From: an uncultured Lachnospiraceae bacterium
Lineage (GTDB): Bacteria; Bacillota; Clostridia; Lachnospirales; Lachnospiraceae
NCBI GenBank assembly: GCA_946405625.1
Contig: CAMJHQ010000005.1
Span: forward strand, 62,001 to 126,000
Direction of reading: 5' to 3'
Length of the DNA: 64,000 nucleotides
The notes under the pieces were generated by a model that searched no databases, was not told where the DNA came from, and worked only from the letters and a program-made list of their open reading frames with translations. Below are positions 44,484-44,713 of the stretch, piece after piece (the first letter of the stretch is position 1; each line of letters opens with the position of its first letter). Both the position numbers and the translations under genes were made by a program.

Positions 44484-44517
44484 AAAAAGCCCGTATCTGA
44501 ATCGGTCAGATACGGGC
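44484..44517 (-). terminator. strong intrinsic terminator inside the mgtE leader
   Basis: GCCCGTATCTGA-CCGAT-TCAGATACGGGC-TTTTT on the minus strand, 12-bp perfect stem. Confidence 0.9.
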
Positions 44518-44534
44518 AGTTATATCATGAAAAA

Positions 44535-44633
44535 TCAGCAAACAGAATGAGCATGTATCAGTACATGGTCATCATCTGCTGTATTAAACATTTCCGCTCG
44601 CCCGTCTGACCCATGACTGTCACCGCTAACCAT
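44535..44633 (-). CDS. putative mgtE leader peptide MVSGDSHGSDGRAEMFNTADDDHVLIHAHSVC (32 aa)
   Basis: AAAGGAGGTGA SD 5 nt upstream of the ATG (a near-complete anti-SD match). The stop codon lies 17 nt before the terminator stem. Confidence 0.6.
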   Translation of the reverse strand: MVSGDSHGSDGRAEMFNTADDDHVLIHAHSVC

Positions 44634-44684
44634 TCTGTCACCTCCTTTATAGTGGATTTCTATGCATAAATATCATGCCTATTT

Positions 44685-44713
44685 ATTATCACACCTTAAC
44701 ATTAGGATGTCAA
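44685..44713 (-). promoter_or_regulatory. mgtE promoter, TTGACA-N17-GATAAT
   Basis: -35 at 44708-44713, -10 at 44685-44690, directly after the lemA stop. Confidence 0.7.

What the first reader, a model, noticed from the sequence alone, without database searches (positions are those of the whole stretch)
44484..44713. mgtE leader with an Asp-rich uORF, terminator and matching anti-terminator: candidate Mg2+-responsive leader-peptide attenuator
Seen on the minus strand: a promoter (TTGACA-N17-GATAAT), then AAAGGAGGTGA and an ATG 5 nt later opening a 32-codon ORF, MVSGDSHGSDGRAEMFNTADDDHVLIHAHSVC. Seventeen nt after its stop is a perfect 12-bp intrinsic terminator (44484-44517), about 80 nt before the mgtE ATG. 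The uORF segment GGTCAGA-CGGGC (44600-44611) is complementary, with a 2-nt bulge, to GCCCGTATCTGACC (44504-44517), the 5' arm plus loop of the terminator, so terminator and anti-terminator are mutually exclusive. Established background: enterobacterial mgtA is controlled by the leader peptide MgtL, and runs of acidic residues destabilise translating ribosomes at low Mg2+. Inference: low Mg2+ stalls or drops ribosomes at ADDDH, leaving codons 8-12 free to form the anti-terminator and switch mgtE on. I see no M-box hallmarks (GGUGAGGCUCCU). A peptide-based Mg2+ attenuator on an mgtE-family transporter in a Firmicute would be new as far as I know.
Basis: partly seen in the sequence, partly recalled or inferred. 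Interest (0 to 1): 0.82.

Follow-up and report, generated by a model that had tools for sequence, protein, structure and literature searches.

The report
Leader-peptide switch controlling a magnesium transporter
A short, conserved peptide gene sits in front of the magnesium-transporter gene mgtE in many gut bacteria, and its own RNA can switch mgtE on only while ribosomes are not covering it, which points to a peptide-based magnesium sensor not described before in this bacterial group.

Summary
Promoter, Shine-Dalgarno, 32-codon uORF, 12-bp terminator and an equally strong competing pairing (uORF codons 8-12 with the terminator 5' arm) are all present, and the competing pairing is not chance (0/300 shuffles). 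The uORF is real and ancient: most examined leaders of this MgtE subfamily in the order carry one of a single family, N-terminus M-D-x-C-D-S-H-G-R (window variant MVSGDSHGSDGR). In a scan of 85,488 species' genomes, all 28 assessable Firmicutes matches to the motif precede mgtE. The motif is under protein-level selection, with an Arg codon that is almost always the rare CGA. The codons just after the motif (in the window, overlapping it) pair with the gene's own downstream leader far better than with other leaders; that downstream strand otherwise forms a terminator or hides the mgtE ribosome-binding site. So an uncovered uORF should mean mgtE ON. No M-box occurs in this genome. The likelier sensor is the N-terminal motif, resembling Salmonella MgtQ (Asp2/Glu5). 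A Mg2+ response and the trigger are inferred, not shown. New variant of a known kind.

The parts
44685..44713 (-). promoter TTGACA-N17-GATAAT
   Evidence: scores 11/12. Upstream of the uORF 45 of 70 relatives score at least 10/12, against 1 of 55 control stretches between uORF and mgtE
44638..44648 (-). Shine-Dalgarno of the uORF, AAAGGAGGTGA
   Evidence: a strong SD precedes the uORF in the relatives found (a strong SD was part of the search criterion)
44535..44633 (-). uORF / leader peptide MVSGDSHGSDGRAEMFNTADDDHVLIHAHSVC*
   Evidence: conserved in all 12 mgtE orthologues of the genus and across the order
44598..44624 (-). conserved peptide motif, codons 4-12 GDSHGSDGR (long form of the family motif D-S-H-G-R), Arg12 = CGA
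   Evidence: pN/pS 0.34 in the motif of short-form relatives against 0.77-0.95 after it; CGA in 42 of 43 Arg codons at the site against 8% usage in mgtE
44600..44611 (-). switch strand (antiterminator 5' strand) GGTCAGACGGGC, inside the uORF
   Evidence: -22.6 kcal with 44517-44504, 0/300 shuffles; equivalent helix in relatives
44537..44580 (-). hairpin formed by the 3' half of the uORF, including the GAT-GAT-GAC (DDD) codons
   Evidence: -15.6 kcal; sequence largely kept in G001; probably brings the two switch strands together (inference)
44504..44517 (-). shared strand GCCCGTATCTGACC: 5' arm of the terminator and partner of the uORF switch strand
44484..44517 (-). intrinsic terminator (12-bp stem, 5-nt loop, U5)
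44410..44414 (-). Shine-Dalgarno of mgtE, GGAGG
42967..44403 (-). mgtE (478 aa), the regulated gene

Best explanation
It is a ribosome-controlled attenuator of mgtE run by a newly recognised leader-peptide family. SHOWN by sequence comparison: a conserved uORF (motif M-D-x-C-D-S-H-G-R, or the long form ..GDSxGSDGR as here) lies in the mgtE leader. The codons just after the motif (in the long form, overlapping its end) form a strand that pairs with a downstream strand. That downstream strand can instead build a terminator (this window and other genera) or mask the mgtE ribosome-binding site (other relatives). INFERRED direction: when the uORF switch strand is free of ribosomes it captures the downstream strand, the terminator or mask cannot form, and mgtE is ON; ribosomes moving through or sitting on the switch strand turn mgtE OFF. 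INFERRED signal: low Mg2+ makes ribosomes abort or hesitate early, on the N-terminal Asp/Ser/Gly/Arg block, before they reach the switch strand, so mgtE is induced when Mg2+ is short, as with MgtL and MgtQ of enterobacteria.
For: uORF conserved in all 12 orthologues of the genus and in 44 of 61 assessable leaders of the subfamily across the order; all 28 Firmicutes pattern hits with enough sequence beyond the uORF precede mgtE. MgtE tree: the label is on all deep branches and needs about 5 changes, fitting one origin with losses. Protein selection: pN/pS 0.34 in the motif of short-form leaders, 0.77-0.95 after it; Ser6 written AGT or TCT; length changes in the motif are whole codons. Switch helix: in 44 non-redundant leaders, codons GR+3..GR+11 pair with the own downstream leader at median percentile 0.047 among other leaders (24/44 in the top tenth, p 2e-13); control on the motif itself p 0.27 (first run). 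The downstream strand pairs in turn with a terminator 3' arm or the mgtE RBS (12/37 in the top tenth, p 1.7e-4). Genus g44: UGCGACGAGrCAUU pairs with AAUGUCAUCGUC, the 5' arm of a terminator directly before mgtE. Promoters upstream of the uORF. No M-box in this genome, with positive controls ringing.
Against: No expression, ribosome-profiling or Mg2+ data. Only about half of the leaders show a clearly significant helix by themselves, and I did not resolve the platform of every leader. The equilibrium fold of the full window leader is the terminator whether or not codons 5-14 are masked, so the switch must be kinetic, and in Firmicutes RNA polymerase may outrun ribosomes (own knowledge). Asp2 is absent in the long form and Asp5 in the GSCGR subgroup, so a simple double-acid trigger is not universal. 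17 leaders of the subfamily have no such uORF.
Confidence: 0.74

Rival explanations
1. One reading: ribosomes stall or drop at the C-terminal ADDDH run at low Mg2+, freeing codons 8-12 to form the antiterminator.
For: Geometry is possible here: a ribosome at codons 20-22 would leave codons 8-12 free; both G000 and G001 keep DDD.
Against: DDD is absent from every other leader. The C-terminal half evolves with 6 non-synonymous to 2 synonymous changes between the two species. The DDD codons are part of a stable hairpin.
Confidence: 0.08
2. Codon- or arrest-based variant: the ribosome pauses on the GGG-CGA-AGU block under one condition (for example ample Mg2+, or another signal) and its footprint covers the switch strand, turning mgtE OFF; relief of the pause turns it ON.
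For: Arg codon is CGA in 42 of 43 cases although CGA is 8% of Arg codons in mgtE; Gly is GGG in 28 of 32 short-form cases against 6% usage; Ser10 is AGT in 24 of 24. This is more constraint than the amino acids need.
Against: CGA is replaced by CAA (Gln) in a few leaders, which a slow-CGA model does not predict; no known arrest motif matches (own knowledge).
Confidence: 0.3
3. An RNA aptamer (riboswitch) whose conserved sequence happens to be open, with no role for translation.
For: Strong nucleotide conservation at GGGCGAAGU beyond the code; variable expression platforms behind one conserved block, as in riboswitches.
Against: Start codon plus strong SD in frame; whole-codon length changes; pN/pS 0.34; Ser6 AGT/TCT swap; no conserved base pairing within the block found; no Rfam match at gathering score.
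Confidence: 0.08
4. The same attenuator, but sensing something other than Mg2+, such as general translation capacity or another ion carried by this MgtE subfamily.
For: MgtE-family proteins can carry other divalent ions (own knowledge); nothing tested here identifies the signal.
Against: Exclusive association with mgtE and absence of an M-box in this genome and in the sampled members of its family fit Mg2+ feedback best.
Confidence: 0.2

Closest known systems
[quoted passage not shown]
   Same: Short uORF with a strong SD before a Mg2+ transporter gene; acidic residues at positions 2 and 5 (here Asp2 and Asp5 in the short form) reduce uORF translation; alternative stems overlapping the uORF hide or free the downstream RBS.
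   Different: 8 codons; no shared peptide sequence known beyond the acidic positions; there a start-codon knockout lowers mgtB; regulates MgtB, a different protein family, in enterobacteria, translational only. Here 21-65 codons, mgtE, Lachnospirales, both terminator and RBS-masking platforms.
MgtL leader peptide of mgtA, E. coli / Salmonella (PMC11282234)
   Same: Leader peptide whose translation fails at low Mg2+ and so allows a Mg2+ importer to be transcribed; early acidic residues (EPDP).
   Different: Rho-dependent termination, Pro/acid motif, P-type ATPase target; no evident sequence relation to DSHGR.
M-box (ykoK) Mg2+ riboswitch, RF00380
   Same: Controls mgtE in Bacillus (own knowledge) and occurs in other families of the same order.
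   Different: No match in the window or the genome; in 197 genomes of the order the 29 with an M-box all lie outside the window's family and carry only distant MgtEs.
mgtE motif riboswitch candidate (Narunsky et al. 2024, PMC11109978)
   Same: Upstream of mgtE.
   Different: Found only in Thioalkalivibrio; proposed as an RNA structure including the mgtE start, without a uORF in the passage read.
trpB motif, Rfam RF04312
   Same: Weak full-length match of the hairpin plus terminator here (31.6 bits, gathering 59) and in G001 (30.7 bits).
   Different: Below cut-off; not found in the other mgtE leaders tested, so most likely a generic hairpin-terminator resemblance.

Membership tests
Ribosome-mediated attenuator (leader-peptide type) | conserved translated-looking uORF between promoter and gene | tested here: met
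Ribosome-mediated attenuator (leader-peptide type) | uORF RNA takes part in a helix that excludes a terminator or RBS-masking stem | tested here: met
Ribosome-mediated attenuator (leader-peptide type) | ribosome position on the uORF changes downstream expression | not testable with these tools
   needs reporter fusions, toeprinting or Ribo-seq
M-box (RF00380) | match to the covariance model at gathering score | tested here: not met
   controls B. subtilis and L. lactis ring
MgtL/MgtQ-like Mg2+ leader peptides | early acidic residues in the leader peptide | tested here: inconclusive
   Asp2 33/34 and Asp5 31/34 in short forms; long form keeps Asp5 (often Asp10); GSCGR subgroup only Asp2/Glu2; no acidic or Pro-acid run
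MgtL/MgtQ-like Mg2+ leader peptides | induction at low Mg2+ | not testable with these tools
   no expression data
MgtL/MgtQ family by descent | sequence homology of peptide or regulated gene | not tested
   no direct comparison run; the targets are different families (MgtE against the P-type ATPases MgtA and MgtB)
trpB motif RF04312 | gathering score 59 bits | tested here: not met
   31.6 and 30.7 bits

The most novel reading that the evidence does not exclude
The DS-x-G-R(CGA) block is a new Mg2+-sensing translation module: a combined nascent-peptide and codon signal, not an acidic or proline run, that aborts or pauses the ribosome in a Mg2+-dependent way. It takes the place of the M-box throughout one MgtE lineage of Lachnospirales, with interchangeable terminator and RBS-masking outputs.
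Probability: 0.4. Interest if true: 0.82.

Novelty: new variant of a known kind. Interest (0 to 1): 0.7.

Why it matters
Peptide-based Mg2+ control has been described in enterobacteria (and, by a different route, an M-box-controlled uORF in Mycobacterium); in Firmicutes the known Mg2+ control of mgtE is the M-box riboswitch. Here an unrelated leader-peptide family guards mgtE in major gut genera (Blautia, Coprococcus, Fusicatenibacter, Agathobacter), which seem to lack the M-box. It gives a short, fixed nine-residue motif with an almost invariant codon, so the open question of how a ribosome itself reads Mg2+ becomes testable with point mutations. It also challenges the view that Firmicutes rarely use ribosome-coupled attenuation. 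The text searches of the open-access library found no description of it; subscription papers and preprints were not searchable.

Tried and rejected
Protein-database search with a 40-aa uORF found only itself, because short-peptide databases and word indexes miss such ORFs; the window's own peptide was too short to submit. Automatic terminator scan over all leaders was too loose: many hairpins lay inside the uORF, so I did not use it for counts. First pairing test timed out and its rerun let RNAduplex span large loops; it was replaced by windowed, cognate-versus-non-cognate tests. Covariation counting inside genus g44 was not pursued because the helix hardly varies there. A riboswitch reading was considered and set aside on the codon evidence. 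trpB motif RF04312 rejected as below cut-off.

Full report
1. The observation. The one slip is a 4-nt SD-to-ATG spacer, not 5. The pairing of uORF codons 8-12 (44611-44600) with the terminator 5' arm (44517-44504) is worth -22.6 kcal/mol against -21.7 for the terminator. It is the best partner in the upstream leader and is reached by 0 of 300 shuffles and 1 of 300 random segments. Folding the nascent RNA before the terminator 3' arm exists gives the antiterminator; folding the finished RNA gives the terminator. The switch, if real, is therefore decided during transcription.

2. The uORF is conserved. The mgtE orthologues in the genus (81-95% identical, 12 of 61 species counting the window) all have a uORF at the same place: MVSGDSHGSDGR, MANGDS[HY]GSDGR, MANGDSHGSSGR and similar, ATG or GTG start, with an in-frame insertion in one case. 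Across the order (395 genomes; regions), leaders of the MgtE subfamily carry the same family, mostly in a short form, M-D-[SNGK]-[CS]-D-S-[HYC]-G-R, in 44 of 61 assessable loci; 17 lack it. The window's long form (three extra codons..GDSxGSDGR) belongs to a well-supported branch of the MgtE tree. The uORF label sits on all deep branches and needs about five changes, fitting one origin and several losses, with the caution that part of the sample was picked by the motif.

3. It belongs to mgtE alone. A degenerate DNA pattern for SD (AGGTG) + start + D-x-[C/S-like]-D-[S-like]-[H/Y/C/R]-G-R was run over one genome from each of 85,488 species: 36 hits. Of these 28 precede mgtE on the same strand, 25-343 nt from the uORF stop; 5 lie at contig ends; 3 are in Actinomycetota or Planctomycetota and look like chance. 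Named carriers include Blautia wexlerae, B. luti, B. glucerasea, Coprococcus comes, Fusicatenibacter saccharivorans, Hominisplanchenecus faecis and Agathobacter sp. The pattern fixes an AGGTG SD, so it undercounts (genus g44, found through, uses AGGAG).

4. It is read as protein, with extra constraint on codons. In 35 non-redundant short-form leaders pN/pS is 0.34 over codons 2-9, 0.77 over codons 11-15 and 0.95 over codons 16-23. Ser6 is written AGT in most and TCT in eight; motif length differences are whole codons. Leaders without a detected uORF were searched for the motif DNA in any frame; only one turned up, and it was in frame. Yet the Arg codon is CGA in 42 of 43 cases against 8% usage in mgtE, Gly8 is GGG in 28 of 32 against 6%, and Ser10 AGT in 24 of 24 against 16%. 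Something beyond the amino acids is selected there.

5. The switch strand. I tested whether uORF segments pair better with their own downstream leader than with the leaders of others, which keeps composition and conserved sites equal. In 44 strictly non-redundant leaders the segment starting right after the motif does (codons GR+3..GR+11: median percentile 0.047, 24 of 44 in the top tenth, binomial p 2e-13), while the motif itself does not (p 0.27) (54-leader version). Leaders share ancestry, so the p-values are indicative. Within the window's genus the helix covaries by clade: GGTCAGA.CGGGC with the terminator arm (this clade); GGGTCA with TGACTC, which otherwise opens the stem TGACTCTGC..GCGGAGG over the mgtE SD (8 of 8 leaders, including G100 from a neighbouring genus); GGGTCG (a synonymous Ser change) with CGACCC. 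In genus g44 it is UGCGACGAGrCAUU with AAUGUCAUCGUC, the 5' arm of a terminator next to mgtE, and in one sub-clade a wholly different helix fills the same place. In Coprococcus comes the uORF GGATGGGAA mimics the mgtE RBS GGATAAGGAGG, both competing for TTCTTATCC. Overall the downstream strand pairs with a terminator 3' arm or RBS region in 12 of 37 leaders within the top tenth (p 1.7e-4). This gives the direction: switch strand free, mgtE ON; switch strand covered, mgtE OFF.

6. The signal. mgtE encodes a bona fide MgtE (TIGR00400 equivalog). The M-box is absent from this genome while the control genomes ring. In 197 genomes of the order, 29 have an M-box, none of them in the window's family, and none of those 29 has this MgtE subfamily (the scan of many genomes is less sensitive). 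A Mg2+ signal is the natural inference but is not shown. Salmonella MgtQ has acidic residues at positions 2 and 5 that reduce its translation and, at low Mg2+, favour the stem that frees the mgtB RBS (PMC8092293); E. coli MgtL has an EPDP motif (PMC11282234). The short form here has Asp2 (33/34) and Asp5 (31/34). The match is suggestive but incomplete: the long form lacks Asp2 and the GSCGR subgroup lacks Asp5. The near-invariant CGA leaves room for a pause at G-R instead.

7. DDD exists only in G000 and G001; the C-terminal half of the uORF differs by six non-synonymous and two synonymous changes between them; and the codons form a hairpin. I therefore keep the attenuator and move the sensor to the N-terminal block.

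8. Novelty. The text searches found no description. The only other named mgtE RNA element found is a Thioalkalivibrio riboswitch candidate (PMC11109978). The mechanism class is known; the peptide family, the target family, the lineage and the paired terminator and RBS-masking outputs are new as far as the searched sources go.

Noticed in passing
leaders L010, L056, L079, L080, L090, L139, L152, L170-L174, downstream of the uORF: TTTATGCC recurs after the T-run of leader terminators (7 of 44 non-redundant leaders against 0.2 expected); meaning unknown.
   Followed up: partly
window 44598-44624 and the motif in relatives: Almost invariant rare codons GGG-CGA-AGU in the motif; the exceptions are mainly CGA to CAA, not to other Arg codons, hinting at a constraint on RNA or on decoding.
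   Followed up: partly
G002-G036 and other species of the window's genus: Most of the 61 species of the genus lack this MgtE and carry only a distant one (24-28% identity); the 20 distant-MgtE and uORF-less loci scanned with Rfam showed no M-box, so how those genes are controlled is open.
   Followed up: no
L061 978-1053: A c-di-GMP-I riboswitch lies on the minus strand near mgtE in a Blautia-like genome.
   Followed up: no
window 44714-46450: Upstream of the leader are a LemA-family gene and a DUF3137 gene on the same strand; the mgtE promoter begins directly at the end of the LemA gene.
   Followed up: no
window 42166-42801 (+): Small lipoprotein-like ORF (211 aa) convergent with mgtE, no Pfam match.
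   Followed up: no
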